Below, piece by piece: positions 3,039 to 63,859 of a stretch of 64,000 nucleotides of DNA (the stretch's first letter is position 1; every line of letters starts with the position of its first letter). The DNA lies in the NCBI GenBank assembly GCA_027484985.1, contig JAIXRW010000068.1, positions 62,001-126,000 on the forward strand. The letters are read 5' to 3'. Source of the stretch: Rhodobacter sp. Its GTDB lineage: Bacteria; Pseudomonadota; Alphaproteobacteria; Rhodobacterales; Rhodobacteraceae. The position numbers and the translations under genes are program-made. Below the pieces are notes generated by a model. That model ran no database searches. It saw only the letters and a list, made by a program, of their open reading frames with translations, and was not told the origin of the DNA.

Positions 3039-3195
3039 GGAATGCTCCGAGCGAGGGCCGGGGTAACGCGGTGCAGGGTAACGGGTGCGGGGATGGGGGG
3101 GAAGGGGGCGGGGGGTGACATTGTGGCGGGGGGGGTGATGTCGATGGCACGGCACAGGCGCGTGCCTGTGCCGCGCGGTGCGGGTTCAACCATCC

Positions 3196-44047: not shown

Positions 44048-44665
44048 CTAGCCCCCGAACTGCTGGGTCAGCAGGACATGCTGGGTAAAGTGGAGGATGC
44101 CGCGCAGGGCGGGCACGCCGCGGGCGGACAGGGCCGCGCTGGCCAGCGCCTTGCGGCCTGCATCGCCATCGCCGCGCTGGAAGGCGAGATAGCCGCGCAG
44201 GGCCAGCACGGCGGGATGGGGTTTGCCCGTGGGCTGGACAAGGGCAAGGACGGCATCCGCCTCGGCGCTGCGGGTGAGCGAGGCGAGGCAAAGCGCCATC
44301 TGGTACAGGGCGGCGGGGTCGATCGGGTCTGCCGATGTGACCATGGCCATGAGCAGGGCGCCCAGCGCCTCGGGCAGGCGGCCGGCGGCCAGTTCGTCCT
44401 GCGGGGCGGGCGCGGCGAGCGAGGGGCATCCGGCGGCCTGGGGCAGGGTGGCAAGGGTGGCAAGGGGGCCGAGCGGCAGGCTGAGCGCGCCGCTGGCCAG
44501 AGCGGCGGCGGCAAGGGCCGCGCGGGCCTGTTCGGGCGGGGCGCCCTGCGGCAGGGGCGGAACGGTGAGCGTGATCGCAAGCGCGGGCATCGCCGTGCCG
44601 TCGATCTGACGGGGCAGAAGTTCGAGCGCGACGCTGGCGCCATTGAGCTGAGAGGTGCGGCCCAT
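44048..44665 (-). CDS. TPR-type protein of the secretion locus, possible SctY
   Basis: A 205-residue protein with start at 44665 overlapping the sctD stop (ATGA). The N-terminal half is Ala/Pro/Leu-rich. The C-terminal ~100 residues look like two to three TPR-type helix pairs (LYQMALCLASLTRSAEADAVLALVQ, AVLALRGYLAFQRGDGDAGRKAL). The place just before the SctX-like gene suggests the YscY chaperone role. YscY is only 114 residues, so the extra N-terminal domain is unusual. It could instead be an unrelated locus-specific protein. Confidence 0.5.
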   Translation of the reverse strand: MGRTSQLNGASVALELLPRQIDGTAMPALAITLTVPPLPQGAPPEQARAALAAAALASGALSLPLGPLATLATLPQAAGCPSLAAPAPQDELAAGRLPEALGALLMAMVTSADPIDPAALYQMALCLASLTRSAEADAVLALVQPTGKPHPAVLALRGYLAFQRGDGDAGRKALASAALSARGVPALRGILHFTQHVLLTQQFGG

Positions 44666-47454
44666 CACTTTCCTTTGCAATCGGGCGTGGCGCAGGCATC
44701 GACCACCCGCCAGCCCAGATCGGGGCCGAAGGTCTGGATGCGGGTGCCATCGGCCGTTCGGACGAGGATGCCGAGATCGCCGATGGCGGTCAACCGGCTG
44801 GTGATATCGGGGGCTGCACCTTCGCGCAGTTTGCGGCCATCGCGCAGTTCGATATAGCGGTCGCCTTCCAGACTGGCGCCGACAACGGGCAGGTCGGACC
44901 GCGGCACGTTGCGGAACAGGAATTCGACGAAATCGGGATTGCGCGCGGTTTCGGCAAGGAAGGTCGAGCTGTTGCCCACCATCTGGCCGAAATCGGTGCG
45001 GGTGCGGTCAAGGCAGGCGCGGACGCGGGCAGGGGACAGGGCGGTTTCCATGATCACATCGCGCAAATCGGGGGCGATGGTGGTGATATCGCTTTCGCTG
45101 GACAGGCTGAGCGAGTCGAGCAGCAACAGCGCGGCTGGCAGCATTTCGGGCGTAAGTTTGCCGCCTGTCCAGCATGTCACGGGTTCATCGACCGGATAGG
45201 GCAGCGCCGATAGCGGGCGCGGCAGGCGCATCAGCGTGCGGCCCATTTGCAGCTGTTCGTGCTGCATCGAGACAAGGGCGAGGAGATTGGGCGAAATCGC
45301 GGCCTTGACGGCGGGCGCCGTGGCGCCCGTCGGGGCCATGACGGCATCGGCCTCGGCCATCATGCGGTCAAGGCCGGCGGATTCGCCGCCGGGCAGGGAA
45401 AAGAAGGGCAGGCCCTGTTTGCTGGTGCCTTCGGGTTCGGCAGCGGGCAAAAGCGCGGGCGCTTCGGTTGCCGCCGCTGCGCTGGCCGCAGGCTGGGGTG
45501 GGGCATCGGGCGCGGTGCTGGCGATGGCGGGTGCCACGGGGGGGGTGGCATCGGCCGCATCGGCCTGCGCGGGTGCGGGCTGGGCCGGGGTTTCGGCATC
45601 GGCAACGGTTTGCGTCACGGCAGTCTGCGTGGGCGCGGGTTGGGCGGGCGCGGGGTCAGTTGCGGCGGGCCGTGTTGGTTCGGGCTGGGGCGCGATTGCG
45701 GCGGTTTGGGCCGGTTGCGGCGCGGTGGCTTGCGCGGCAGCGGGCTGGTCGGCGGCGGGTTGCGGGGCCGGGGCCGGGGCCTGTGCGGCGGCGGGGGCGG
45801 CCAGCAGGATCGGGGCGCCCGCAAGCGGGGTTGCGGCAACGGGGGCCGCGCCAAGCGGGGCTGTGGCCTGTGCGGTGGCAGAAGGCGCTGCGGGCCGCGC
45901 GAGGGCATCGCGCATCTGGGCGGCCAGTTCATCAAGCGTGCCGATCGCGCCGATGCCGGGGATCACAACCTCGACCCGCTGGACGCCATCGCTGCCCGAG
46001 GCGGTGCTTTGCATCTGGCCGCCAAGGGCCGACATGATCTGTTGTAGCAGCGCAGCATCGGGCATCCGGCCCTGCGCGATGGTGTCGGACAGGCTGCGGT
46101 AAAGTTCGGGGCGTTCGCGCGCCAGCTGGTCAAGGGCCGCGGCAAGGTTGGGCGGAATGGCGGGCCGCACCGGTGCGGCGGCGGCACCGCTGGGGACGGG
46201 CTGGCCGGTGGGGGGGCCCGCAAACAGCGACCGCGCGTCAATCTCGTTCGGGGCCGTCAGGGTTTCGGGGGCGACCACGCGGCCGGTTTCGGCGGCGGCG
46301 GCAGGGCCCGAGCCGATGATGACGGGGGCCGTATCGGAGGCGGCGGGCTGGTCGAGCGTCACAAAGGAACGCAGCGGGATTTCGGCGGCGAAGCGGCGCG
46401 AATAGGCACCGATCAGGCCGACCCAGTTATCGACCTTGTCGCGGGGGACGATGCCGGTCGCTTCGACGACCAGACCGTCGAGCCGGAAGATCACAAGGTT
46501 GCCAAGACCGGCATCGCGGGCGATGCCGCGCAGATCGGACAGGATTTCATCGGCGGTCCGCATCTCGGATTTGACGGAGGCGAGGCCGAAAACGCCGGTG
46601 CGGATGCTGTCTGTCAGGCGGGCGGCGGCGGCGGGGTCAAGCACGGTGCCGCGCAGGGTAAGGTTGCCCGCATCGTCGAGCGCGAAGGTGGCGGGCACTT
46701 TCATGCTGTCGATGGTGCCCGCCACATCGGCGCGCAGGTTTTCGCGCACAAAGACCCGCAGCGCGCCGGGCAGGCCCGAGGCATCGAAAGCGTTCTGGAT
46801 GGCGCGGCGTTCGACCTGATCTTCGACATAGCCTTCGATCGACAGCGTTCCGTCGGCGCGTTCGTCGATTTTCACGCCCGAGGCGAAGGGCATGGCGGCA
46901 AGGGCGGCGCGCAGGTCGGTCATGGCGGCGGCGGTCGCCTCGGCCCCGCCGCGCTGGGCGGCATCGCCGCCATTGCCGCCCAGCATGGTCACAAGCGCCA
47001 AAAGGGCGACAGCCCCGCCCGCCGCATAGATAACGCGGCGCGGCAGGGCGGCGAAGGTGCGGCCGGCAAGGCCGAAATCGGCCGGTTTGCGGGGTTTCTG
47101 CGCCGGTGTGGCGGGCACAAGGCTGGACCAGTTCGCGCCGCTGCCCGCGATGACGAATTTCGACAGGCCGGCCGAGACGGCATCCATCTGGGCGATTTCG
47201 TGCCAAGTGTCATCGTCGCGTGCGACCGACAGGCCCGAAGCGGTTGAAAAATCGCCCTGCATCGCGCGGATTTCGATCTTGCCGTCGCGCAGGCGGACCC
47301 GTCCGTGCAGCGGTTGCAGCGAGACGTCGAGAAGCTGGATGTCGGCATCATCGCCCGAACCGAAGGAATAGGTGCCGTCGGATAGCGTAACCTCGGCCCC
47401 GAACTGGTTGCCGCTGAGCACCTTGAGGATGTTGTCGCCCTGCGCGTCTGCCAT
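44665..47454 (-). CDS. sctD: SctD inner-membrane ring protein with long linker and extra C-terminal domain
   Basis: A 929-residue protein, over twice the size of YscD (about 420). Order of parts: cytoplasmic FHA-like domain (about 8-105), one membrane helix at 141-159, periplasmic ring-building BON-like repeats (KIDERADGTLSIEGYVED; TFALDDAGNLTLRGTVLD), then a ~300-residue Ala/Pro/Gln-rich linker, and a C-terminal ~200-residue globular domain with CWTGGKLTPEML, RACLDRTRTDFGQMVGNSS and a Cys pair at ACATPDC. SctD forms the outer inner-membrane ring with SctJ. Long SctD forms are known in Chlamydia, but this tail is of unknown type. Confidence 0.85.
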   Translation of the reverse strand: MADAQGDNILKVLSGNQFGAEVTLSDGTYSFGSGDDADIQLLDVSLQPLHGRVRLRDGKIEIRAMQGDFSTASGLSVARDDDTWHEIAQMDAVSAGLSKFVIAGSGANWSSLVPATPAQKPRKPADFGLAGRTFAALPRRVIYAAGGAVALLALVTMLGGNGGDAAQRGGAEATAAAMTDLRAALAAMPFASGVKIDERADGTLSIEGYVEDQVERRAIQNAFDASGLPGALRVFVRENLRADVAGTIDSMKVPATFALDDAGNLTLRGTVLDPAAAARLTDSIRTGVFGLASVKSEMRTADEILSDLRGIARDAGLGNLVIFRLDGLVVEATGIVPRDKVDNWVGLIGAYSRRFAAEIPLRSFVTLDQPAASDTAPVIIGSGPAAAAETGRVVAPETLTAPNEIDARSLFAGPPTGQPVPSGAAAAPVRPAIPPNLAAALDQLARERPELYRSLSDTIAQGRMPDAALLQQIMSALGGQMQSTASGSDGVQRVEVVIPGIGAIGTLDELAAQMRDALARPAAPSATAQATAPLGAAPVAATPLAGAPILLAAPAAAQAPAPAPQPAADQPAAAQATAPQPAQTAAIAPQPEPTRPAATDPAPAQPAPTQTAVTQTVADAETPAQPAPAQADAADATPPVAPAIASTAPDAPPQPAASAAAATEAPALLPAAEPEGTSKQGLPFFSLPGGESAGLDRMMAEADAVMAPTGATAPAVKAAISPNLLALVSMQHEQLQMGRTLMRLPRPLSALPYPVDEPVTCWTGGKLTPEMLPAALLLLDSLSLSSESDITTIAPDLRDVIMETALSPARVRACLDRTRTDFGQMVGNSSTFLAETARNPDFVEFLFRNVPRSDLPVVGASLEGDRYIELRDGRKLREGAAPDITSRLTAIGDLGILVRTADGTRIQTFGPDLGWRVVDACATPDCKGK

Positions 47455-47739: not shown

Positions 47740-50121
47740 ATGGTTTGGATGATCAAGCGGCCTGAGCATAGAGCGCGGGTGCGCGACATGTGGCATGCGT
47801 GGCCGCGCAGGGTGATGGCGCTGGTCGCGGTGGCCGCGTTCGGGTTCGTCTCGGCCTGTGATGATGCCAGCGGTCCGCAGGTTTCGGCCCCGCGCAAGGC
47901 GCTGGTGGTGGTGCGCGATCCCGAAACGAAGGCCGAGCTGATCACCACGGCGAAAGAGGCGCAGAAGATCAATTTCTTCTCGAAGGAAAACCTGCGTGCG
48001 ACCACGTTTTCGGGCAATGCCAACCCGCGGCTGGCGGGCGACACGTCGCGCGACCCGACGGGGTTCATCGACACGCGGGCGGCCAACCAGATGCCCGGCG
48101 GGATCGATTCCAACCGGGGCGAATACTATGCCGAGGTGGGCGGGCGCGGCGTGGTGATCGAGCCCATTCCCCCCACCCGCGTGCTGGGCGGCGAGTGGCA
48201 GGGGCCGATGGATGGCGGGACGGTCACGCTTGAATTCAACAACGAGCCGCTGACTTCGGTGGTGCAGCGGGTGCTGGGGGGGATTCTTGGCGTCAATTAC
48301 AACATGGGCAACGGGCTTGAAGGCAGCGTGACCTTCCGGTCTGAGGAAAGCTTTACCAAGCGGCAGGTGATCGAGGTGCTGGCCGATATTCTGGCCCGCA
48401 ACGGATATCTGATCCAGTATTTCAACGGCGTCTATCACATCGGCCGCCCCGAGGAATTGCAGACGCTGACCGGAATCAGAAGCGCGTCGTCCAGTTCGGG
48501 CGAGGAGACCAAGGTGCTGCGGCTGCGGCGCAAGGCGCCGGACAATCTGGCCGATATCGTCAATTCCATCCTGCCGCCGGGGACGACCGTGGCGCTGGTC
48601 GATGAAGGCAACGGGGTGATGCTGAACGGCGATCCGGGGCAGTTCGATTCGGTCGAAGGGCTGGTGAATACGCTGATGGGCGACAACCAGCTTGGCTATA
48701 TGGCCATTCTGCCGCTGCGGCGCGCCCCGCCCGAGGCGGTGACGGCGCTGCTGTCGCAGGTGTATGAAAAGCGGCTGAACGAGCTGATTCTGGTGCCGGT
48801 CGAGACGGTGCCGGGGATTCTGGTGATGGCATCGCAGCCTTCGTTGATCAAGGAAGTGCAGGCGCTGGTGCGGCAGTTCGATGTCGAGAACCGCGATACG
48901 CCCAAGGTGCGGATGATCCAGTTGCGGTATCTGAACCCGTCCGACCTTGCCTCGCAGTTGAACCGGCTGGTGGATTCCACCTCGGTCGGGGCGGGGCCGA
49001 CGGCGAAACTGTCGGACAGCCAGCTTTCCAACGTGGTTTCGGCGGCCATCGACCGTGCCAATCCGGCGGGGGCACAGGCGCCGCGCCCGTCCTTGCCGCA
49101 GACCACGACGAATGCCGATGGCGAAGGCAATATCGCCATACCACCTTCGCGGTTCATCAATACCACGCGGGGCGGAGAGGCGGCGGGCGGGCAGGCGGGC
49201 GCGGGCGGGCAGGCGGGCGGACAGCAACAGCAGCGCGCCGCAGCGAGCGAGGGCATTACCTTTAGCGCCGATGACCGCAACCGCGCGCTATTGGTGCGGT
49301 CCACCTTTGCCGAGTTCCAGCATATTCAAGAGGTGGTCAAAACGCTGGACGTGCCGCTTTCGCAAGTGGCGATCGAGGCGACCATCGTGGAAGTGGATAT
49401 CAATGACGCGCTGCAATTCGGCGTGCAGGCCTTTTTGCAATCAAGCGGCATCACCGTGCGGTCGTCGGACACGACGGGGGCCGCTTCGCCCGGGGGCGGC
49501 GGTTTTGCGGGCAAGTTCAGCACCACGGCGGGCGGCGCCAGCATCGATATGGTGATTTCGGCGCTGCAAAGCGTGACGAATGTGCGCGTGATCTCGTCGC
49601 CCTATCTGACGGTGGTGGATGGCGGAACATCGCGCCTGTCGGTGGGGGACCAGATCCCCTATACCGTGGCGTCGCAAACATCGAATTCCAACGGCACTGT
49701 CACGGTGACGGAAGAAACCGACGTGCGCGATGTCGGCGTGATCCTGAGCGTGACGCCACGGGTCAGCCCGGATAACTCGGTCCTGCTTGAGGTGACGCAG
49801 GAAGTGTCGTCGGCGCGCAGTGTGGAAACGGCGGCGGGCACCGATCCGGTGATCGCGCAGCGCAGCATCACCAGCCAGATCGTGGTGCAATCGGGGGCGT
49901 CGGTGCTGCTGGGCGGGTTGATCCAGGAGCGGACCGAGACGACCGAGAACGGTATTCCGGTGGTGCGGCGGATTCCGGTGCTGGGCAATGCCTTCAACCG
50001 CAAGAAGGACACGCAGACGCGCAGCGAATTGCTGGTGATGATCACGCCGCGGGTATCGCGCACGGATGAACAGATGCAGGACATCACCCGCAGGCTGCGG
50101 CTGGAGATCGGCGCGAACTAG
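47740..50121 (+). CDS. sctC: SctC secretin, GspD-like, predicted lipoprotein
   Basis: A 793-residue secretin. The signal region ends in lipobox VSAC with Cys40. A secretin STN/N0-like domain is at about 160-245 (TVTLEFNNEPLTSVVQRVLGG), then N1/N2 modules (LRLRRKAPDNLADIVNSILP; MIQLRYLNPSDLASQLNRLV), a Gly/Gln-rich loop (AGGQAGAGGQAGGQQQQ) and the barrel domain with VRVISSPYLTVVDGG and VLLGGLIQERTETTENGIPVVRRIPVLG. The barrel text is of the type II GspD kind. Context assigns it to the injectisome outer-membrane ring; no other gsp genes are here. Confidence 0.88.
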   Translation: MVWMIKRPEHRARVRDMWHAWPRRVMALVAVAAFGFVSACDDASGPQVSAPRKALVVVRDPETKAELITTAKEAQKINFFSKENLRATTFSGNANPRLAGDTSRDPTGFIDTRAANQMPGGIDSNRGEYYAEVGGRGVVIEPIPPTRVLGGEWQGPMDGGTVTLEFNNEPLTSVVQRVLGGILGVNYNMGNGLEGSVTFRSEESFTKRQVIEVLADILARNGYLIQYFNGVYHIGRPEELQTLTGIRSASSSSGEETKVLRLRRKAPDNLADIVNSILPPGTTVALVDEGNGVMLNGDPGQFDSVEGLVNTLMGDNQLGYMAILPLRRAPPEAVTALLSQVYEKRLNELILVPVETVPGILVMASQPSLIKEVQALVRQFDVENRDTPKVRMIQLRYLNPSDLASQLNRLVDSTSVGAGPTAKLSDSQLSNVVSAAIDRANPAGAQAPRPSLPQTTTNADGEGNIAIPPSRFINTTRGGEAAGGQAGAGGQAGGQQQQRAAASEGITFSADDRNRALLVRSTFAEFQHIQEVVKTLDVPLSQVAIEATIVEVDINDALQFGVQAFLQSSGITVRSSDTTGAASPGGGGFAGKFSTTAGGASIDMVISALQSVTNVRVISSPYLTVVDGGTSRLSVGDQIPYTVASQTSNSNGTVTVTEETDVRDVGVILSVTPRVSPDNSVLLEVTQEVSSARSVETAAGTDPVIAQRSITSQIVVQSGASVLLGGLIQERTETTENGIPVVRRIPVLGNAFNRKKDTQTRSELLVMITPRVSRTDEQMQDITRRLRLEIGAN

Positions 50122-50134
50122 CGGGGGCCGGTGG

Positions 50135-50956
50135 TCAGGGCGTTGCGGCGCCCTGACGCAGGATTTCATAGAAGGCGTCGAAATAGGCGTTGACCGTGGA
50201 CTGTTCGCCCACCGCGTGGCCCATCAGGATGGGCAGGTAGAACAGCATGATCAGCATGGCGATGGCGCTTTTGATCGGCATGGCCAGAATGAACACCTGC
50301 ACCTGCGGGGCAAAGCGGCTGACAAGGGCCAGCGCAAATTCGGCCAGGAACATGATGATGACGATGGGCGCCGACAGCAGCACGCACAGCATCATGCCGC
50401 GGTCGAGCACGGCAAAGATCAGGGCGGGGAAGCTGGCATCACCGATGGGCAGCAGGGCGCGGACGGGCCAGAGGCTGTAGCTGTTGTAGATCAGCCCGAG
50501 CAGGGTAAGAAACCCGCCGAGCGTGAAGAAATAGGTCACGAAAGCCTGCGAGAACAGGATGCCAAGGGGCGATGCCTCGTGCCCTTGCAGCGGGTCGATG
50601 GACGAGGCGATGGCGGTGCCGCGCTGGTTGTCGATCAATGTGCCCGCGCTTTGCACCGCCCAGAACATCCAGAACACCAGATAGCCAAGGATGAAGCCAA
50701 GGGCGAATTCCTTGACGAAATACAGCATGAACAGCGGCAGGCTGCCGGCGAACACCGCCGCATCGGGGCGCAAAAGCGGGACAAGCGGCATGCACAGCAC
50801 AAGGATCGCCACGTTGCGGGCAAGGCGGGGCATGACCGTCGGGCTGAGAAGCTGGCTGGCGACGATGAAGGCGTAGAAACGCGGAAGCGCCATCAGATAG
50901 GCCATCAGATGGTCTTTCATCACCTCGTACAGCGAAAGGATACCGGCGTAATTCAT
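50135..50956 (-). CDS. sctT: SctT export-apparatus protein (YscT/FliR family)
   Basis: A 273-residue polytopic protein starting MNYAGILSLYEVMKDHLMAYLMALPRFYAF. Six or so hydrophobic segments, the KEFALGFILGYLVFWMFWAVQSAGTLIDNQRG block and GHEASPLGILFSQAF define the SctT/FliR family. With SctR and SctS it forms the export gate core in the inner membrane. It is isolated from sctR/S/U here, flanked by sctC (convergent) and sctW (divergent). Confidence 0.93.
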   Translation of the reverse strand: MNYAGILSLYEVMKDHLMAYLMALPRFYAFIVASQLLSPTVMPRLARNVAILVLCMPLVPLLRPDAAVFAGSLPLFMLYFVKEFALGFILGYLVFWMFWAVQSAGTLIDNQRGTAIASSIDPLQGHEASPLGILFSQAFVTYFFTLGGFLTLLGLIYNSYSLWPVRALLPIGDASFPALIFAVLDRGMMLCVLLSAPIVIIMFLAEFALALVSRFAPQVQVFILAMPIKSAIAMLIMLFYLPILMGHAVGEQSTVNAYFDAFYEILRQGAATP

Positions 50957-51107
50957 GCCCGCAGATTGGGGCAGGTGCGGGCGGGCTGGCAAGGGCGGCG
51001 GCGGCACGGGCGGGGGTTTCGCCTTTTGCGGGTATCGTTTGTCACCTGCGCCGGGCGTGCAGTTGGTAGGGTTGGGCCAGTCCGGCGCTGTTGCGGGGGA
51101 ATGGCAG
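50957..51107. promoter_or_regulatory. Divergent sctT/sctW promoter region with shared motif
   Basis: A 22-base sequence GGGTATCGTTTGTCACCTGC plus GC at 51030-51051 matches 19 of 22 bases of 62860-62881 in the sctV/sctG gap. It lies 57 bases before the sctW start and 74 bases from the sctT start, so it could serve either direction. Confidence 0.6.
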
Positions 51108-52307
51108 ATGAGCATCAGCTCTTCACAGGAAGTGATCCGCACCCAGATTGCGGTGAACAATTCGACCTCGGTCGTGGGCAACGAGATCATGGCCAATGCC
51201 ATGGGCAAGGATGTTCGCACCAATGAATCGGTTCAGGTGGCACCCGACCAGTCTGACCTGACCGACGCGCTGGAAGAGCTGGGCATGGGCGTGGCCCATC
51301 GCGGCAAGCCGGATGTGGAAAAGATGAAGGCGCGGCGCGGCGCGGCCACGGATGTGGACGCGCTGTCGCGCATCCTTGACTATCTTGACCAGTTGCCCGG
51401 CATGCCGAGCGAGGACAAGTACAAGCAGCTTGTGGACAAGTTGCAGAAGTTTCAGGACATGTCGCTTTCGGGCGGCGGCAGTGGCGGTGACAGCCAGATC
51501 ACCGCGGATGACCTGCGAAAGCTGCTGGCCGATTATGACGGCGATGTCACGCATCAGGCCGTTGCGCTAGAGCGGTTGCGGCAGGATGCGATGGCCACGG
51601 GCGCAGCACCCGCCGTTCTGGCCGCGATTGACCAGTTGCGGAGCGAATTCGCCTCGCCCGAGACGCTGCGCGACATTCGCGCGGGGCTGGCGGCGGGGCG
51701 CGAGGCGCATCAGATGGGCGACCGTTTCGGCGCCGATCCGGGGGCCTATCGCGAAAGCTATCGCGAATTGCTGCGCGACCCGCAGCCGCGGCTGGGATCG
51801 GTGTTCGATTCGCTGCGGAAGTTCAGCCTGACCGAGAAGTTCGACGATGTGATCGACTCGTTCCTCAAGGTGGCGGGGAACGATCTGGCCTCGGCGGGGC
51901 CATCGGTCGATCCGGTGCAGCTGGGATCGGTGATGACCGAGTTGAGCAAGCTCAAGAACCTGCGGACGGTGCTGAAGGCATCGGAAGACACGGTGATCAA
52001 GCTGGACCGCACCTATCCGCCGCCCGAGGGGCGCGCGCGGCCGAGCGGGGAAGAGATCGCATCGCGCCTGTTGCATTTCAGCGGGATGACGCTGCCCACA
52101 TTCAGCGATGCAAACGCCCTGTTGCGCGGGTTCGAGGGCGAGGCGCCCGAAGTGCCGGTGCTGGTGGTGAACCTGCTGCGCGGCCAGCATGCCGCGCTGC
52201 CCGATACGGTGCTGCCGTCGGTCACGGCGCATGAACAGCAATCGCGCTTGCTGATGAACCTGTCTGACCGCGTGGTCGAAACCGAAGAAAAGGCGTTTGG
52301 CGGGTAG
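51108..52307 (+). CDS. sctW: SctW gatekeeper (YopN/MxiC family, TyeA-like end)
   Basis: A 399-residue protein from the ATG at 51108 (MSISSSQEVIRTQI). The N-terminus is Ser/Thr/Asn-rich like a secretion signal. A helical body follows (LEELGMGVAHRGKPDVEKMKARRGAATDVDALSRILDYL), and the last ~90 residues resemble TyeA, ending LLMNLSDRVVETEEKAF. Its length fits YopN plus TyeA in one chain. SctW holds back effector secretion until host contact and orders translocator export. Confidence 0.85.
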   Translation: MSISSSQEVIRTQIAVNNSTSVVGNEIMANAMGKDVRTNESVQVAPDQSDLTDALEELGMGVAHRGKPDVEKMKARRGAATDVDALSRILDYLDQLPGMPSEDKYKQLVDKLQKFQDMSLSGGGSGGDSQITADDLRKLLADYDGDVTHQAVALERLRQDAMATGAAPAVLAAIDQLRSEFASPETLRDIRAGLAAGREAHQMGDRFGADPGAYRESYRELLRDPQPRLGSVFDSLRKFSLTEKFDDVIDSFLKVAGNDLASAGPSVDPVQLGSVMTELSKLKNLRTVLKASEDTVIKLDRTYPPPEGRARPSGEEIASRLLHFSGMTLPTFSDANALLRGFEGEAPEVPVLVVNLLRGQHAALPDTVLPSVTAHEQQSRLLMNLSDRVVETEEKAFGG

Positions 52308-56978: not shown

Positions 56979-58741
56979 GCGGGGGCGGCGGCGGCGGGGT
57001 TGGCGGGGTCTTTGACCTGCTGCGCAGTGCTGCGGCTGCCGAGATTGCGAAATCATTCGGGGTCTGGGATTTGCCCCCGCTTGAGGCTGCGGCGCGGTCG
57101 GCGGCGCCTACTGCGGCGGCGGCCCCGCAAGCAGCGGCTGCGGCGGCCGGTTGGCCCGAGGCGGGTGCCCTGCCGTTGGCGGGCGATCCGCAGCCTGCGG
57201 CGTTGCGCGGGCCGCCCAGCCTGATGGCAGGGCTTGCGCCGCCGCGTGCGCTGTTGGCCACGTTGTCGGCGGGTGTGCCCGAGGCGATGGCCCAGATCGT
57301 GCCGCAAGCCGGGCAGGGCAGTGGGTCTGGCGCAGGCGGGGCGGTTCTGCGCGGTGCTTTGGTCGCGCCGTCGGATGCGCAGGCGGCGCCGGTGGGGCCC
57401 CTTGTGGCTGAGGCAACGCCCGGTGCGGTGCGGGCGGTGGTAGCGCGGCCCGTGGCGGGGCCGGTGCCGGATGTGGCCGGTGCGACGGCGCGGGTGGATA
57501 TGGGTGCGCCGGTTGCTGGCGGTGCGGTTGCGGCGGGGCCACGAGAGGCGGCGGCGGAACGGCCGCCTGCCGCGCCGGTGGCCGAGGGTGCGGTGCCTGC
57601 CGGTGTGATGCGGCCGGCAGGGGGCGCTAACACCGCGCCGATGCCCGTCGCGTCACCGCCTGCGGTGGCCGAGCCGATGGTGGCGGCGGAACCGAAGGGT
57701 GCTGCGGGACAGGGCGGCCTTGGGCAGCGGGGGGCCTTGGGCTTGGCCGCGCCGGTGGCGGGCGTGTCGCCTGACGGGGCGCAGGGTGGCCAAACGGTTG
57801 AAGGGGGTGCGGCAGCGCGCGCGGGTGTGCCTGTTGCGGCGATGCCGCCGTCTGTTTCGGGGGCGTCTGTTCCGGCGGTGCCCGCCATTGCCTTGCCCGA
57901 GGGTGCGGTGACGGCAGGATCGGGGGCTGTGGTGGTGCCAGCGGCGGCCATGGCCGAGGGATTGGCCGCGCAAGGCGGGGCGGTTGTGGCGGGCAGGCCG
58001 GTGTTGCCGGATGGCGGCGCACGAGCGGCAGGGCAGGTGGCACGCGCGGATGTGGCGCAAGCGCCAGACCAGACTGCGCCAGACCTGACCGCGCCAGAGC
58101 GGGCGGCGGCGGGGACCGATGCGCCGCGTGGCGGGCCTGCGCCTGCGCGGGGCGACACGCGCGAACTGGCGCCGGTTGCCATGCTGACGGCGGGGGAATT
58201 GCCCGCGCTGCGGTCGGCCACGGGGGCCGAGCGGGGCATGGCCGCGCCGCAGGCATTGACGGCGGCCTTGGCCGTTGCGCTGGCCGAGGCGCAGGGCGGG
58301 GGCGGATTTCCCTTGACCACGGGCGCGCAGGGGGCGGCGGCGTCATTGGTGATTTTCAACGCCGCCATGATCCCGCAATGGCCGCCCGCCTTGCGGCTGG
58401 ATCAGGCGGTGACGGATCAGGCGGTCAGGGCGGCGGGTGCGGACCTGGCGGGTATGAACCCCGAAGAGGCGGCGGAATATCTGGCCAAGATGGCGGCGGC
58501 CTTCGGGTTTTTGCTGACGGTGAAGAAGCGGCTGGCAAAGACGGTGCAGGAAGAGAAAGACCTGTTGCTGGGCTTGTTCTCGTTCCTTGGTGTGGCCTTC
58601 GATACCCTGACACGCGGGTTGCAGATGGCCTTTGACCTGACGGCCGAACAGCGGGAATTGTTGGAAGAATTGGTGTTGCGCGATGAAACCGGGCGGCGCC
58701 CGCCCCGCGGCGGGCGGGGGCGCGAGCGGTTAAAGCTGTAG
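56975..58741 (+). CDS. Ala/Pro/Gly-rich low-complexity protein with helical C-terminus, candidate secreted substrate
   Basis: A 588-residue protein with a TTG start inside the preceding stop (TTGA). About 460 residues are Ala-, Val-, Pro- and Gly-rich without fold-like pattern. The last ~120 residues change to a structured helical domain (MNPEEAAEYLAKMAAAFGFLLTVKKRLAKTVQEEKDLLLGLFSFLGVAFDTLTRGLQMAFDL). Long disordered part plus C-terminal domain would suit a needle-length ruler (SctP) or an exported effector; neither is shown. A TTG start is rare, and a later start is possible. Confidence 0.6.
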   Translation: MSGGGGGGVGGVFDLLRSAAAAEIAKSFGVWDLPPLEAAARSAAPTAAAAPQAAAAAAGWPEAGALPLAGDPQPAALRGPPSLMAGLAPPRALLATLSAGVPEAMAQIVPQAGQGSGSGAGGAVLRGALVAPSDAQAAPVGPLVAEATPGAVRAVVARPVAGPVPDVAGATARVDMGAPVAGGAVAAGPREAAAERPPAAPVAEGAVPAGVMRPAGGANTAPMPVASPPAVAEPMVAAEPKGAAGQGGLGQRGALGLAAPVAGVSPDGAQGGQTVEGGAAARAGVPVAAMPPSVSGASVPAVPAIALPEGAVTAGSGAVVVPAAAMAEGLAAQGGAVVAGRPVLPDGGARAAGQVARADVAQAPDQTAPDLTAPERAAAGTDAPRGGPAPARGDTRELAPVAMLTAGELPALRSATGAERGMAAPQALTAALAVALAEAQGGGGFPLTTGAQGAAASLVIFNAAMIPQWPPALRLDQAVTDQAVRAAGADLAGMNPEEAAEYLAKMAAAFGFLLTVKKRLAKTVQEEKDLLLGLFSFLGVAFDTLTRGLQMAFDLTAEQRELLEELVLRDETGRRPPRGGRGRERLKL

Positions 58742-59410
58742 CCGCAGGCGGCGATACAGGCCGCGCAGCAGCCAGACCGACAGCGCGAAAGCCGACAGGT
58801 TCAGCACAAGGACAAGGCCGCGCCACAGGTGGGCAAGGGTGGCGGATATGCCCCCCGCTTCGCCGGTTCCGCCATCGGCCGCCTGACCGGGGCCTTGGGT
58901 AAGAAGGCGCAGCAGGGCGGGGCGGAACGCCTCGGGTCCGGTGGCGCGGGGCAGGGACAGGAAGGCGGTGGAAAAGCCCGAACCCGCGCCTTCGGGCGGC
59001 GCGCGCAGGGCATCGGGCACGGTCAGTTCTTGCAGCGCGCTGCCGTTCTGGCGGGCGGTTTCCACCACAAGCGCGTGGTGGCGGGGCGAAAAGACGAAGG
59101 CGAGGCTGCGGGCAGGCCACGGGCCGCGATGCTGCGCCAGCGGGCGCGGGCCCTGCGGGGTGACGATCTTCGCCCCGCTGGCGGTAAGTTCGACCAACAG
59201 CACGGCAGGATCGGGGTTCAGGCGCAGGTAAAGCAGGTCGCTTTGCGCATGGCCCGACAGCGGGATGGCGGGCTGTGCCAGAACCTGCACGGGGGCGGGC
59301 GGGCGCCCCTGAAGCGTGCCGATGGCGACAAGAAGGATCACAAGCACGGTGACGAGATTGGCGCCAAGATCGGCCATGACCGCATCGATGCCGCCGCTGC
59401 CGTCATCCAT
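58730..59410 (-). CDS. ExbD/TolR-like protein 2 with additional C-terminal membrane helix
   Basis: A 226-residue protein from the ATG at 59410. N-terminal helix at 15-33 (LGANLVTVLVILLVAIGTLQ) preceded by Asp14, a periplasmic part of ~160 residues and a second hydrophobic helix at 196-216. The N-terminus follows ExbD/TolR/MotB form, with an acidic residue at the mouth of a single helix, but the C-terminal helix is not usual for that family. Its start overlaps the preceding gene by 8 bases. It is last of the four-gene sctV operon. Confidence 0.6.
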   Translation of the reverse strand: MDDGSGGIDAVMADLGANLVTVLVILLVAIGTLQGRPPAPVQVLAQPAIPLSGHAQSDLLYLRLNPDPAVLLVELTASGAKIVTPQGPRPLAQHRGPWPARSLAFVFSPRHHALVVETARQNGSALQELTVPDALRAPPEGAGSGFSTAFLSLPRATGPEAFRPALLRLLTQGPGQAADGGTGEAGGISATLAHLWRGLVLVLNLSAFALSVWLLRGLYRRLRLQL

Positions 59411-59891
59411 TGCAGGACAGGCCTGTGGGCGTGAAGCGCGGCGACAGGCAGGGCGCGGCAAGCCGGATGCGGCTGTAGCCGGTCAGTCCGGCCTGTGCCA
59501 GTGCGGTGTCGATCAGAAAGGCGCTGTCGGTGGCATCGGCGGTGATGATGACGGTCGGATTGCCGGGCCGGGCCGCCCAGTCGCGCAGGGCTGCGCCCAG
59601 CAGCGCATCGGTGGGCAGGGTCAGCGGGGCCGCGCCGGGACTGACAAGATCGACCCCGCCCGCGCGGGCGATGGCAAGGCGCAGCCCGCTTTGCGTGGCG
59701 GCGGCGATCAGGGCGCGGCCGGTTTCGGCGGTGGCGGCGCGGGTCTGTTCGGCAAGGGCGTGTTGCAGGTTCTGCGACAGAAGGCAGATCAGCACGATCA
59801 GGATGGCCGAAAGGCCGAAGAACAGGTCCGAGGCGGCGGTGCCGGCGCCGCCGTCACCCGCATCGTCGGCGGGGTCAGCCGGTGCGGTCAT
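59403..59891 (-). CDS. ExbD/TolR-like proton-channel subunit
   Basis: A 162-residue protein: Asp22 at the start of one membrane helix (LFFGLSAILIVLICLLSQ), then a coiled linker and a small periplasmic domain whose end, TVIITADATDSAFLIDTALAQAGLTGYSRIRLA, has the ExbD/TolR strand-helix-strand text. In that family the Asp carries protons and the domain touches the partner or cell wall. It overlaps the ExbB-like gene by 17 bases. Confidence 0.72.
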   Translation of the reverse strand: MTAPADPADDAGDGGAGTAASDLFFGLSAILIVLICLLSQNLQHALAEQTRAATAETGRALIAAATQSGLRLAIARAGGVDLVSPGAAPLTLPTDALLGAALRDWAARPGNPTVIITADATDSAFLIDTALAQAGLTGYSRIRLAAPCLSPRFTPTGLSCNG

Positions 59892-60651
59892 CGCGGTCGG
59901 CCAGCAGGGTCAGCAGGAAGCCCGTCGCAGCCGAAAAGACAAGGCCGATCAGCGTGGTTTCAAAGGCGGTGGACAGGCCGCGCAGGACCGGATCGAGCGC
60001 CGCGCCGTTTCGCCCCCCGGGGGTGAACAGGTCGGGCAGGCTGGCCAGCGCCTCGATGATGCCCGCGATGGTGCCCAGAAAGCCCAACAGCGGCAAAAGC
60101 GCGATCAGGGCGCGGATCAGGCGCTGGCGGCGGGGCGGCAGCGCGGTGGTGGCGGCATCGGCAAGGGCGACAAGGACCACGCAGAAGGCAAGGAAGATGA
60201 CAAAGTGGTAGGGCGTGGCAAGGCACAACCGCGCTGCGGCGGGCGCGGCCAGATGCAGGCCGGTGCCAAGGCAGCCCGACAGCGCAGCCCCAAAGGGCAA
60301 CAGCGCCAGCGTGCTGGCCTGCCGTTCGGGCAGCAGCGGCATCAGCGACATGCCCGCCGCAAGGCTGGCCGCGACAAAGGGCCAAAGCGCAAAGGCGCCG
60401 ATCTGCGCCCCGCCGCCCGACATCAGCAGGGTCGCCACCACAAGCGGCCAGAAGGCCGCGACCATCCGCGCCACGGGGCCAAGGCGGGGCAGCCGGTCGG
60501 ACAGCAGGAACAGAAGGCATGCCGCCACCGGCGCGCCCGCAAGGTTGCGCAACGGGCCTGCCCAAGGTGCATCGGGGCCAAGAAGCGCAAGGCCCGTGGC
60601 GTAAAGCACCGCCGCGACAAAGGATAACAGCGCCGCCGCCCGTGGGGTCAT
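59875..60651 (-). CDS. MotA/TolQ/ExbB-type channel protein coupled to SctV
   Basis: A 258-residue polytopic protein. The C-terminal third has the proton-channel signature PLLGFLGTIAGIIEALASL (187-205) and LSTAFETTLIGLVFSAATGFL (226-246), as in MotA/TolQ/ExbB. The N-terminal part has about four further hydrophobic segments, more than TolQ has in total. The start overlaps the sctV stop as ATGA. With the two ExbD-like partners it should form an inner-membrane ion channel. Such proteins are not known parts of the injectisome. Confidence 0.78.
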   Translation of the reverse strand: MTPRAAALLSFVAAVLYATGLALLGPDAPWAGPLRNLAGAPVAACLLFLLSDRLPRLGPVARMVAAFWPLVVATLLMSGGGAQIGAFALWPFVAASLAAGMSLMPLLPERQASTLALLPFGAALSGCLGTGLHLAAPAAARLCLATPYHFVIFLAFCVVLVALADAATTALPPRRQRLIRALIALLPLLGFLGTIAGIIEALASLPDLFTPGGRNGAALDPVLRGLSTAFETTLIGLVFSAATGFLLTLLADRDDRTG

Positions 60652-62756
60652 CGTATCTCGATCCGTTCGAGGGGCTGGACGTTCACCTGTGCGGTCAGTT
60701 CCTGAAAGGACAGCACGGCAAGATCGGGAAATTCGCGTTCCACGATCTTGCGGAAGAAGCGGCGGATGTCCATCGGGGCAAGCACCACGGGTTTCATGGC
60801 GTGGCGGCTAAGGTCACCGATCGTGGCGCGCAGCGCGGCGATCAGCTTGCGGTGCGATTCGGGAGAGAGCGCGAGGTAGGAGGCGCCGCTGGTCTGGCGC
60901 ACGGCGCCGCGGATTTCATCTTCGACCGTCTTGGACAGAAGATAGGCCGACAGCACGCTTTGCCCGCCCGAGAATTTGTGCGTGATGTAGCGGTTCAGCG
61001 CCGAGCGGACATGTTCGGTCAGCAGGATCGGGTCTTTTTCGCGCTGGCCCCATTCCACGAGGGCTTCGAGGATGGTGCGCATGTCGCGGATCGAGATGTC
61101 TTCGGTGACCATGCGTTGCAGGACATCGGCGATGGTGATGACGGGCAGGGTGCGCGTCACCTCGCGCACGAGTTCGGCGAAATTCGCCTCCATCTGCTTC
61201 ATCAGATACATGGTTTCCTGCACGCCGATAAACTCGCCCGCGTGGGATTTCAGCGTGTGGGCCAGATGGTAGGTGAGCATGGAGGGCAGGGTGAAGGTCT
61301 GGATGCCCGCGTTGCGCAGCACCGCTTCGTGTTTGAACGGAACCCAGAGCGAGGGGACGTTGGGCAGAAAATCCTCGCCGCGTTCATAGGGGATCTGGAA
61401 CATGTCGAGGTTCTGTTCCGTTTCGCGCACCAGAAGAAAGCCGGGGCGGGCGGTGCCGACGGCCACGGGAATTTCGTTGACGAGGATGCGGTACTGGTCT
61501 TTTTCCAGCGTGTCGTTCAGGCGCAGATGAACGCCGGGGAAGGGCACGCCGAGATCGAAGTAAAGCGCGCGGCGGACCTTTGCCACCTCGGCATCCAGAC
61601 GCTTGGGCTGGATATAGGTGCGGACGCTGGACGAGATATCGACGATCAGCGGCACTGTCAGGGCAAAGGTGACGGGGTCCACCTTTTCGACGGGTTCATC
61701 GGCATTGGCGGGAAAGCTGGGCATTGACAGGGCGGGCGCGGTGGCGGCCGCAAGCGCGGGCATGGTGCGGCTTTCGGCATCGTCGGCCACGGCGCGGCGG
61801 CGGCGCTGGATGTGCCAGCCGCCAAGGCCCACGATGGCCGCAAGGATGAGGAAGGTAAGGGTCGGAAAACCGGGCACGACGGCAAAGCCGAGCAGGATGA
61901 CGGCCGAAATCATCAGCGCCTTTGGTTCGTTCATCAGCTGGGCGCCGATATCGGTGCCAAGGTCGTCATCCTTGCCCGAACTGATGCGGGTGACGATGAA
62001 ACCGGCGGTGATCGAGACGAACAGCGCGGGGATCTGGCTGACCAGACCGTCACCGATGGTGAGCAGGGCGTAGATATTGATCGCCTCGTTCGTGGTCATG
62101 CCGTGCTGGGTGGTGCCGACGATGATACCGCCGATGAGGTTGACGAAGATGATGATGATCGAGGCGATGGCGTCGCCCTTGACGAATTTCATCGCCCCGT
62201 CCATCGAGCCGTAAAGCTGGCTTTCCTTTTCCAGCTTGGCGCGGCGGGCCTTGGCGGTGTCGAGGTCGATCAGGCCTGCGCGCATGTCGCTGTCGATCGA
62301 CATCTGTTTGCCGGGCATGGCGTCAAGCGAGAAGCGGGCCGACACTTCGGCCACGCGTTCCGACCCCTTGGTGATGACGATGAAGTTCACGATGGTCAGG
62401 ATAAGAAAGACGATCATCCCGACGACAAGGTTGCCCGCGATCACGAAGTTGCCGAAGGTTTCGACGATATGGCCCGCATCGGCCTGCAACAGGATCAGGC
62501 GGGTGGTGGTGATCGACAGCGCAAGGCGGAACAGCGTGGTCAGCAGCAGGATCGACGGAAAGGCCGAAAAGGCCACGATGTCGTTCAGATAGATCGCCGC
62601 CATCAGCAGGATCGCCGCAAGGCACAGGTTGATGGCAATCAGCACATCGACCAGTGCCGTGGGCAGCGGCATGATCATCATGAACACGATACAGATGAGC
62701 AGAAGTGCAAGCACGAGGTCTTGCCGCTTTGACATCTTGGTCAGGAATGCTTGCAC
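60648..62756 (-). CDS. sctV: SctV export gate protein (LcrD/FlhA family)
   Basis: A 702-residue protein if started at the GTG at 62756 (then QAFLTKMSKRQDLVLALLLI), the length of YscV (704). An upstream TTG at 62828 and an ATG at 62735 are alternatives. The first half has about eight membrane helices with FSAFPSILLLTTLFRLALSI, VVFL-type LILTIVNFIVITKGSERVAEVSARFSLDAMPGKQMSIDSD and KGDAIASIIIIFVNLIGG. The cytoplasmic C-domain has the family blocks through VLAPMDIRRFFRKIVEREF. It forms the nonameric gate that receives substrates. The T3SS context favours SctV over FlhA. Confidence 0.95.
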   Translation of the reverse strand: MQAFLTKMSKRQDLVLALLLICIVFMMIMPLPTALVDVLIAINLCLAAILLMAAIYLNDIVAFSAFPSILLLTTLFRLALSITTTRLILLQADAGHIVETFGNFVIAGNLVVGMIVFLILTIVNFIVITKGSERVAEVSARFSLDAMPGKQMSIDSDMRAGLIDLDTAKARRAKLEKESQLYGSMDGAMKFVKGDAIASIIIIFVNLIGGIIVGTTQHGMTTNEAINIYALLTIGDGLVSQIPALFVSITAGFIVTRISSGKDDDLGTDIGAQLMNEPKALMISAVILLGFAVVPGFPTLTFLILAAIVGLGGWHIQRRRRAVADDAESRTMPALAAATAPALSMPSFPANADEPVEKVDPVTFALTVPLIVDISSSVRTYIQPKRLDAEVAKVRRALYFDLGVPFPGVHLRLNDTLEKDQYRILVNEIPVAVGTARPGFLLVRETEQNLDMFQIPYERGEDFLPNVPSLWVPFKHEAVLRNAGIQTFTLPSMLTYHLAHTLKSHAGEFIGVQETMYLMKQMEANFAELVREVTRTLPVITIADVLQRMVTEDISIRDMRTILEALVEWGQREKDPILLTEHVRSALNRYITHKFSGGQSVLSAYLLSKTVEDEIRGAVRQTSGASYLALSPESHRKLIAALRATIGDLSRHAMKPVVLAPMDIRRFFRKIVEREFPDLAVLSFQELTAQVNVQPLERIEIR

Positions 62757-63349: not shown

Positions 63350-63859
63350 ATGAGCATCTCGCCGACGACAGGCGCACAGGTCTGGAGTGCGTTGGATACC
63401 GGGCAGGTCGGCAATGTGCCGTTGCAGCCCGCGACGGGCGAGATCGACCGTTTCCAGCAGGCGCTGGAACGGGCGGGCATGATCGAGCGTCCTGCCCAGA
63501 TTGACCCGCCGGTGCGGGTGGCCGAGCTGGGCAATGCCGCAACCGCCACCGACGCGCAGACGCCCGCCGATGCGGCCAATGCCGCCAATCGCGCGGTTCA
63601 AGGGCTAGAGCTGAGCACCGATGCCGAAACGGCCGGGCCCGGCACGGCCATTCTGGAAGGGCTGGGCAAGCTGCGCGGCATCTTTGATGCCGAACTGGGC
63701 ACGATCAACCGCGCATCGGGCAACACCAATGCCTTCGACACGCTGGGATTGCTGGATTTGCAGGCCAAGATGGTTGAGTTTTCGCTGGTCGTGGATGTGA
63801 CGTCAAAGCTGGCGGGGAAATCGACACAGGCGCTTGACAGCCTGATGAAAGGGCAGTGA
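63350..63859 (+). CDS. sctI: SctI inner rod protein
   Basis: A 169-residue protein. The conserved C-terminal block LLDLQAKMVEFSLVVDVTSKLAGKSTQALDSLMKGQ matches the YscI/PrgJ form, which ends in LVSKAVQAVDTLTRGQ in Yersinia. The N-terminal ~90 residues are polar and variable. The inner rod connects SctR/S/T with the needle. The stop is followed after 6 bases by sctJ. Confidence 0.9.
   Translation: MSISPTTGAQVWSALDTGQVGNVPLQPATGEIDRFQQALERAGMIERPAQIDPPVRVAELGNAATATDAQTPADAANAANRAVQGLELSTDAETAGPGTAILEGLGKLRGIFDAELGTINRASGNTNAFDTLGLLDLQAKMVEFSLVVDVTSKLAGKSTQALDSLMKGQ

What the first reader, a model, noticed from the sequence alone, without database searches (positions are those of the whole stretch)
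58730..62756. ExbB/ExbD-type ion-channel cassette translationally coupled to the T3SS export gate SctV
Behind sctV, three genes follow with overlaps of 4, 17 and 8 bases. They encode a polytopic protein with the MotA/TolQ/ExbB signature at residues 187-246 and two single-Asp N-terminal-helix proteins of ExbD/TolR kind. Known injectisomes use the proton motive force through SctV itself and have no dedicated channel. The coupling suggests that this locus has added a TolQR/MotAB-like motor or proton channel to drive export, turn the gate or brace the envelope. The two unlike ExbD-type subunits, and the second one's extra C-terminal helix, are also unusual.
Basis: partly seen in the sequence, partly recalled or inferred. 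Interest (0 to 1): 0.92.

Follow-up and report, generated by a model that had tools for sequence, protein, structure and literature searches.

The report
Proton-motor genes in a secretion syringe
A group of alphaproteobacteria carries, built into the gene cluster of its protein-injection machine, three genes that look like a proton-driven membrane motor of the kind that normally energises the outer membrane, which suggests a version of this machine with its own added engine.

The parts
60648..62756 (-). sctV, export gate of the T3SS
   Evidence: TIGR01399 929 bits (cut-off 692), PF00771
59875..60651 (-). A: MotA/TolQ/ExbB-family channel protein, about 8 predicted helices, of which the last two carry the signature
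   Evidence: PF01618 36.6 bits; TolQ is the best PDB sequence match to the five-row profile, E=0.0025, positions 187-251; hydropathy
59403..59891 (-). B: small subunit, N-terminal helix with invariant Asp22, TolR/ExbD-like predicted periplasmic domain, two invariant Cys
58730..59410 (-). C: small subunit, N-terminal helix with invariant Asp14 and Asn18, periplasmic domain, second C-terminal helix with a basic tail
   Evidence: alignments, hydropathy; model pLDDT 70 without a clear fold match
44665..47454 (-). sctD, enlarged (929 aa from ATG at 47454): YscD part, Ala/Pro-rich linker, extra conserved C-terminal domain
   Evidence: TIGR02500 79.7 bits (cut-off 86) over residues 41-373 of the 961-aa ORF; alignment of five; start codon
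47740..50121 (+). sctC, GspD-like secretin (start uncertain)
   Evidence: TIGR02517 309.8 bits (cut-off 351) against TIGR02516 YscC 110 bits (cut-off 238)
50135..51223 (-). sctT (start uncertain)
   Evidence: tblastn with Rhizobium gallicum SctT, 39% over 241 aa
56975..58741 (+). Ala/Pro-rich 588-aa protein, convergent with C and overlapping its end by 12 bases; SctP-like is only my guess
   Evidence: ORF; C-terminal region conserved in G009, G015 and G368; no Pfam or NCBIfam match
63350..63859 (+). sctI, in the divergent gene run that continues past the window with sctJ, L, N, Q, R, S
   Evidence: PF17001 44 bits, TIGR02497 28 bits, both over cut-off

Best explanation
A, B and C form a proton-driven inner-membrane motor of the TolQR/ExbBD kind that is a fixed part of one subtype of T3SS. 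A would be the multimeric (by analogy pentameric) channel wall. The Asp-bearing helices of B and C would sit in its pore (by analogy one of each, the 5:2 arrangement). Proton flow would move the periplasmic domains of B and C. I think the work is done on the periplasmic and outer-membrane side of the machine: on peptidoglycan, or on the envelope-spanning SctD/secretin part, to assemble, stabilise or open it. Shown here: the genes, their conservation and co-inheritance, A's family, B's predicted fold, the invariant pore residues. Inferred: complex formation, stoichiometry, proton conduction, target.
For: A passes the PF01618 cut-off in the window and in G933 (29.2 bits). In 6 of 6 copies PLLGF, GT and TTL of the two pore helices of A and the Asp of B and C are invariant. 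B's model matches TolR best in PDB (Foldseek E 0.05, so moderate). The cassette lies directly behind sctV in 6 of 6 close systems; five of them form one side of a branch on a 31-row SctV tree. The same systems have an enlarged SctD: open frames of 876-1179 aa in 5 of 5, and the extra C-terminal domain in 6 of 6, against open frames of 303-689 aa in the 19 of 22 cassette-less genomes where SctD was found. A GspD-like secretin lies beside SctD in 5 of 5 located. By hydropathy A has only short loops in 5 of 6 copies, unlike a flagellar stator. SctV keeps its charged residues. Tol-Pal is reported as needed for T3SS function in EHEC (passage citing Hirakawa 2020 in PMC12204202).
Against: No experiment. 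B and C have no significant sequence match to ExbD. C's fold is unresolved, and in G933 C is a 108-aa protein without the middle domain. SctD has no Ser-x-His-x-Leu-x-Ser motif of TonB/TolA in its membrane segment (alignment), so it is not shown to be an arm that the motor pulls. In G933 no relative of the window's SctC was found in the 20 kb fetched around sctD, and the extra SctD domain reads in another frame than the N-terminal part. A in G933 has a longer loop, about 75 residues, before the pore helices. Eleven of 18 cassette-less genomes also lack a YscC-type secretin over the cut-off, so an unusual secretin alone is not special to the cassette.
Confidence: 0.5

Rival explanations
1. Export-gate booster: the channel feeds protons or torque directly to SctV or the sorting platform to power export.
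For: Overlap of 4 bases between sctV and A in 4 of 6 copies (11 bases in G933, a 19-base gap in G183). Flagellar stators do act on a cytoplasmic ring (recalled).
Against: By hydropathy A lacks a cytoplasmic domain in 5 of 6 copies. SctV keeps 19 of 19 charged residues of positions 1-330 that are invariant in 22 other sequences, and only one change is specific to the cassette clade, N for Q at 124. Gene coupling alone does not show contact.
Confidence: 0.17
2. Peptidoglycan anchor or clamp: B and C bind peptidoglycan in a PMF-gated way, as MotB and TolR do, and hold the basal body or let it through, with no force on the secretin.
For: B's best fold match is TolR; a passage of PMC9389320 speaks of TolR-like peptidoglycan-binding domains in AglQ/S.
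Against: No peptidoglycan-binding domain found by Pfam in B (6 of 6 tested) or C (2 of 6 tested); C in G933 has no such domain left.
Confidence: 0.2
3. Ion channel used as a sensor: a stripped-down relative that no longer does mechanical work but gates ions on host contact.
For: Short loops of A, two unlike small subunits, and C reduced to 108 aa in G933.
Against: Invariant pore Thr and Asp in 6 of 6 copies point to a working proton path of the usual kind.
Confidence: 0.08
4. Bystander: an envelope motor unrelated to secretion that happens to sit in the operon.
For: Similar three-gene modules exist in G425 and G022, away from any T3SS that I saw.
Against: Same place behind sctV in 6 of 6 systems of two families; not detected near 26 other loci; the genome's one PF02472 match lies on another contig.
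Confidence: 0.05

Closest known systems
TolQR(A) and ExbBD(-TonB)
   Same: Channel protein of the same Pfam family; TolQ is the best PDB sequence match to A; TolR the best fold match to B; Asp at the small subunit's helix
   Different: A has about six predicted helices before the two pore helices and hardly any cytoplasmic part in 5 of 6 copies; two unlike small subunits, neither matching PF02472; C has a second helix; linked to a T3SS
AglRQS, gliding motor of Myxococcus
   Same: One MotA/TolQ-type gene with two TolR-type genes (PMC3169522 and PMC9389320, passages)
   Different: AglQ and AglS match PF02472 strongly (6.7e-18 and 3.1e-15 as printed in PMC3169522); B and C do not match it
GldLM/PorLM of type IX secretion
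   Same: A PMF motor that powers a protein secretion system (PMC9389320, passages)
   Different: GldM has a long periplasmic shaft; B and C are short; a different secretion system
Ysc-type T3SS (Yersinia, Aeromonas, Photobacterium, some rhizobia)
   Same: SctV 53-55% identical and the same core genes
   Different: In the three loci read (Rhizobium gallicum, Mesorhizobium loti, Photobacterium damselae) sctV is followed by sctD or an lcrR-type gene, and no A, B or C relative was detected
T3SS of Chlamydiae
   Same: Reported to have a T2SS-like secretin (PMC3459982, passages)
   Different: No motor genes are mentioned for it in the passages read
Uncharacterised three-gene modules in G425 (L190) and G022 (L191)
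   Same: A-like gene passing PF01618, then two genes with an Asp at an N-terminal hydrophobic stretch, same order
   Different: No T3SS seen beside them; in G425 a vWA-like and a TPR-like protein, both below cut-off, are neighbours

Membership tests
MotA/TolQ/ExbB (PF01618), for A | Match above the Pfam cut-off | tested here: met
   36.6 bits against 22.9; G933 29.2 bits; the other four A proteins were not scanned
MotA/TolQ/ExbB (PF01618), for A | Two pore helices with PLLGxxGT-type and TT motifs (motifs recalled) | tested here: met
   PLLGF, GT and TTL invariant in 6 of 6; aligned with TolQ's pore helices
MotA/TolQ/ExbB (PF01618), for A | Cytoplasmic domain before the pore helices, as in MotA, TolQ and ExbB (partly recalled; PMC12505986 passages) | tested here: not met
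   Hydropathy: 12-16 residues in 5 of 5 tested; G933, the sixth, has about 75 residues. A is placed in the family by its profile match, as a reduced form
ExbD/TolR (PF02472), for B and C | Match to the Pfam profile | tested here: not met
   No PF02472 hit at E<=10 for B (5 of 5 tested) and C (2 of 2 tested); none at E<=1 for B of G933; hhalign against 22 ExbD sequences 0.1% and 0.9% probability, reversed controls 0.3-0.6%
ExbD/TolR (PF02472), for B and C | Asp at the N-terminal helix | tested here: met
   Asp22 of B and Asp14 of C invariant in 6 of 6
ExbD/TolR fold, for B | Periplasmic domain of the TolR/ExbD fold | tested here: met
ExbD/TolR fold, for C | Periplasmic domain of the TolR/ExbD fold | tested here: inconclusive
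5:2 rotary motor | Five large and two small subunits, proton-driven rotation | not testable with these tools
   Only single-chain models could be made
AglRQS | Two small subunits matching PF02472 | tested here: not met
Zorya ZorAB | ZorA above its curated cut-off with ZorB beside it | tested here: not met
   NCBIfam ZorA models 10-14 bits against cut-offs of 500 and 700; PADLOC ZorA models 6-25 bits over the C-terminal part of A; B and C no hit in either
Injectisome T3SS | Core genes sctC D J N Q R S T U V F I and translocators | tested here: met
   All found in the window or L023; SctD, SctC, SctQ and SctF are below their NCBIfam cut-offs, and R, S, T, U rest on tblastn with Rhizobium proteins
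Ysc-type T3SS | YscC-type secretin | tested here: not met
   TIGR02516 110 bits, cut-off 238
T2SS secretin GspD | TIGR02517 above the cut-off | tested here: not met
   309.8 against 351.35: GspD-like, not filed as GspD
TonB/TolA transducer, for SctD | SHLS motif in the membrane helix | tested here: not met
   Not seen in the membrane segment of 5 of 5 aligned SctD (by eye); motif as given in PMC12204202

The most novel reading that the evidence does not exclude
A T3SS subtype with its own rotary proton motor: an asymmetric A5-B-C unit pulls or twists on the enlarged SctD, or on peptidoglycan, to assemble or open a borrowed GspD-like secretin. This would be a hybrid of injectisome and Ton/Tol-type outer-membrane energisation, put together once by recruiting an uncharacterised three-gene motor module.
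Probability: 0.3. Interest if true: 0.93.

Novelty: new variant of a known kind. Interest (0 to 1): 0.82.

Why it matters
The known drives of an injectisome are the ATPase SctN and the PMF used at the export gate (recalled). A conserved, dedicated motor of the Tol/Ton family in a T3SS would give a natural system in which PMF use by the gate and PMF use by the envelope can be told apart by simple gene removals. It would also add to the 5:2 motor family a motor with two unlike small subunits, one of them with a second membrane helix, and give a further case of a T3SS with an exchanged secretin.

Tried and rejected
Profile-profile comparison of B and C with ExbD (22 sequences) gave 0.1% and 0.9% probability, near the reversed controls of 0.3-0.6%; B against C gave 3.2%, with the two Asp in register. 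PHROGs gave nothing of use. Plasmid records gave no relative of A (E<=1e-3) or C (E<=1e-2), viral contigs none of A. The single genome-contig scan returned only Tabrizicola sp. TH137 and a Rhodobacter MAG, whose contig lengths equal those of G009:C35 and G015:C8. The extra SctD domain has no Pfam match (5 of 5 tested, E<=10) and no credible PDB sequence match; I thought of the T2SS GspC/GspB/PilP domain by eye but could not support it. SctD as a TonB-like arm: the layout (one helix, Ala/Pro-rich linker, globular end) fits, the SHLS motif is missing. In the fold searches neither Foldseek (first 50 of 590 rows shown) nor VIA-align gave C a match standing above unrelated folds; that does not make its fold new. 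One search, a first script, printed no hits because the files were named otherwise; one search repeated it.

Limits: the 26 cassette-less loci were scanned with one motif and with the A, B and C profiles within the fetched stretch only (6-20 kb in all, less at contig ends), not with a general MotA profile, so a very unlike channel could be missed. Three of the 26 (G188b, G167, G218) hold a protein below the SctV cut-off that may not be SctV, and two of the 26 come from one genome (G188). Genome draws overlap and are not summed. Only the best-ranked matches were listed. For G183 (L066) I used a C start one codon late; with ATG at 3076 the B/C overlap is 11, not 8.
Full report
What is there. The four genes lie on the minus strand: sctV 60648-62756, A 59875-60651, B 59403-59891, C 58730-59410, with overlaps of 4, 17 and 8 bases. 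SctV passes the SctV model with 929 bits (cut-off 692). A passes Pfam MotA_ExbB with 36.6 bits (cut-off 22.9) over residues 173-250. B and C have no ExbD match at E up to 10. The rest of the T3SS is there: sctX, D, C, W, SycN-like and LcrH-like chaperones, SseC-like and SctB translocators in the window, sctT, sctI, then sctJ, K (by position only), L, N, O (weak FliJ match), Q and F in L023 and R, S and U by tblastn. SctD, SctC, SctQ and SctF score below their NCBIfam cut-offs.

Conservation. Among 61 genomes searched with the A protein, three have a full-length match, the window's own, G009 and G015; seven others match the pore region only, at 8.3e-4 or better. In 394 genomes of the family (393 genera) the five-row A profile gives five matches at E<=1e-12. 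Three are full-length and next to sctV (G000, G368, G183); two are matches to the pore region in modules without a T3SS beside them (G425, G022). In 398 genomes of the phylum it gives two, G000 and G933; in 240 of the class only G000. G933, of another family, also has A, B and C behind sctV, overlapping by 11, 11 and 4 bases. Of the 19 genomes of the genus, the three with a close SctV are the three with the cassette.

Who lacks it. Around 26 other loci (13 from Rhodobacteraceae, 10 from other families of the class, 3 plasmid loci) no ORF matched the A, B or C profile at E<=0.5 or the PLLGxxGT-type motif. Three of the 13 (G188b, G167, G218) are below the SctV cut-off. The SctV-type proteins of these 26 are at most 56% identical to the window's. 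On a tree of 31 proteins the five cassette systems then known are one side of one branch, support 100/100; that tree has long branches among the cassette-less rows. G933 was found later and is not in it; its SctV is 68-71% identical to the five and at most 56% to the others listed.

Residues. In six of six A proteins PLLGF, GT and TTL of the two pore helices are invariant; in B, Asp22 and two Cys; in C, Asp14, Ala17 and Asn18, among others. The Glu at position 231 of A, invariant in five, is Gln in G933. A, B and C diverge quickly (53, 50 and 46% between window and G009, against 90% for SctV), as do other parts of this T3SS such as sctK (46%), sctQ (45%) and the translocators (40 and 52%).

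Anatomy. Hydropathy gives eight helices for A in four of five copies and seven in G368 (L055), with short loops; the stretch before the pore helices is 12-16 residues. MotA, TolQ and ExbB have a cytoplasmic domain there (partly recalled; two- and three-helix cytoplasmic domains of the non-flagellar ones are named in passages of PMC12505986). G933 has about 75 residues there. C has an N-terminal and a C-terminal helix and a short basic tail in five of five; G183 (L066) shows one more, weak hydrophobic stretch, and B of G368 shows two. In G933 the middle of C is missing.

Companions. In one search (23 genomes) the five cassette systems have SctD open frames of 876-1179 aa (stop to stop; the window's protein is 929 aa). 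Of 18 cassette-less genomes 17 have a match, in frames of 303-689 aa. In one search G933 has a frame of 885 aa; of four cassette-less genomes two have 313 and 330 aa and two no match. The extra C-terminal domain of SctD is found in six of six cassette systems and in none of 30 cassette-less stretches, but only 5 of these 30 held an SctD that BLAST recognised with the window's N-terminal part. In G933 the extra domain lies in another frame than the N-terminal part. The linker of the window's SctD is rich in Ala (88) and Pro (49) over 296 residues. The secretin beside SctD is GspD-like in the window (309.8 bits to GspD, 110 to YscC), and its relatives in the four other Rhodobacteraceae systems are 48-75% identical. 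Of 18 cassette-less genomes seven have a YscC-type secretin over the cut-off and eleven do not, so an unusual secretin is not unique to the cassette systems.

SctV itself. In an alignment of 28 sequences (27 of the 31 tree rows plus G933; G188b, G218, G167 and G767 dropped) 19 charged residues of positions 1-330 are invariant in the 22 without the cassette, and all 19 are kept in the cassette systems (G183 lacks data for the first four). One change is specific to the cassette clade, N for Q at 124. SctV therefore does not look like a gate that has lost its own use of the PMF.

Origin. In G425 and G022 an A-like gene (PF01618 38.3 and 37.4 bits) is followed by two genes with an Asp at an N-terminal hydrophobic stretch (by eye). 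Neither genome has an SctV over the cut-off, and I saw none among the ORFs listed around them. I infer that such a module was recruited by the T3SS.

Mechanism. The parts list is that of a TolQR/ExbBD-like motor. Lack of a cytoplasmic domain in most copies argues against a stator acting on the sorting platform. Co-inheritance with a changed SctD and secretin points to the periplasm and outer membrane. The missing SHLS motif in SctD's helix argues against a plain TonB-type arm. Tol-Pal is reported to be needed for T3SS function in EHEC (passage in PMC12204202), so an envelope motor that helps a T3SS is not far-fetched.

Literature. Searches of the held open-access library for 'type III secretion' with ExbD and Rhodobacter, with TolQ and SctV, with Rhodobacteraceae and sctV, with Tabrizicola, for 'injectisome' with ExbB, and three wider ones listed no paper whose title or shown abstract describes a T3SS with its own motor; two searches showed only 20 of 70 and 15 of 818. 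I read passages, not whole papers, of PMC3459982, PMC9389320, PMC12505986, PMC12204202 and PMC3169522. PMC9389320, on 5:2 motors, has no occurrence of 'type III'. Most subscription papers and all bioRxiv preprints are outside that library.

Noticed in passing
window 47740-50121: The T3SS secretin is GspD-like rather than YscC-like; the genome's only other yscC match is a 480-aa frame on another contig.
   Followed up: partly
window 44665-47454: SctD is 929 aa, with an Ala/Pro-rich linker and a conserved C-terminal domain for which I found no known relative.
   Followed up: partly
L023:10408-12204 and L023:12207-13805: Two neighbouring proteins of 598 and 532 aa, some 2 kb before sctU, without Pfam match, have relatives in the four other Rhodobacteraceae cassette systems.
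   Followed up: no
L190:7943-9746 and L191:7756-9562: Three-gene modules (MotA/ExbB-type gene plus two Asp-helix proteins) with no T3SS seen beside them; in L190 near a vWA-like and a TPR-like protein (below cut-off). Function unknown.
   Followed up: partly
L195:9956-12610: In G933 the N-terminal part of SctD and its extra C-terminal domain lie in different frames.
   Followed up: no
L023:6763-7488: A Crp/Fnr-like regulator (by eye, no family search) sits inside the T3SS locus; relatives are 55-79% identical in three other cassette systems.
   Followed up: no
L014 (G000:C62:9856-11865) and G000:C41:8492-10510, outside the window: The genome has two further FHIPEP-type proteins below the SctV cut-off, probably FlhA of two flagellar systems.
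   Followed up: no
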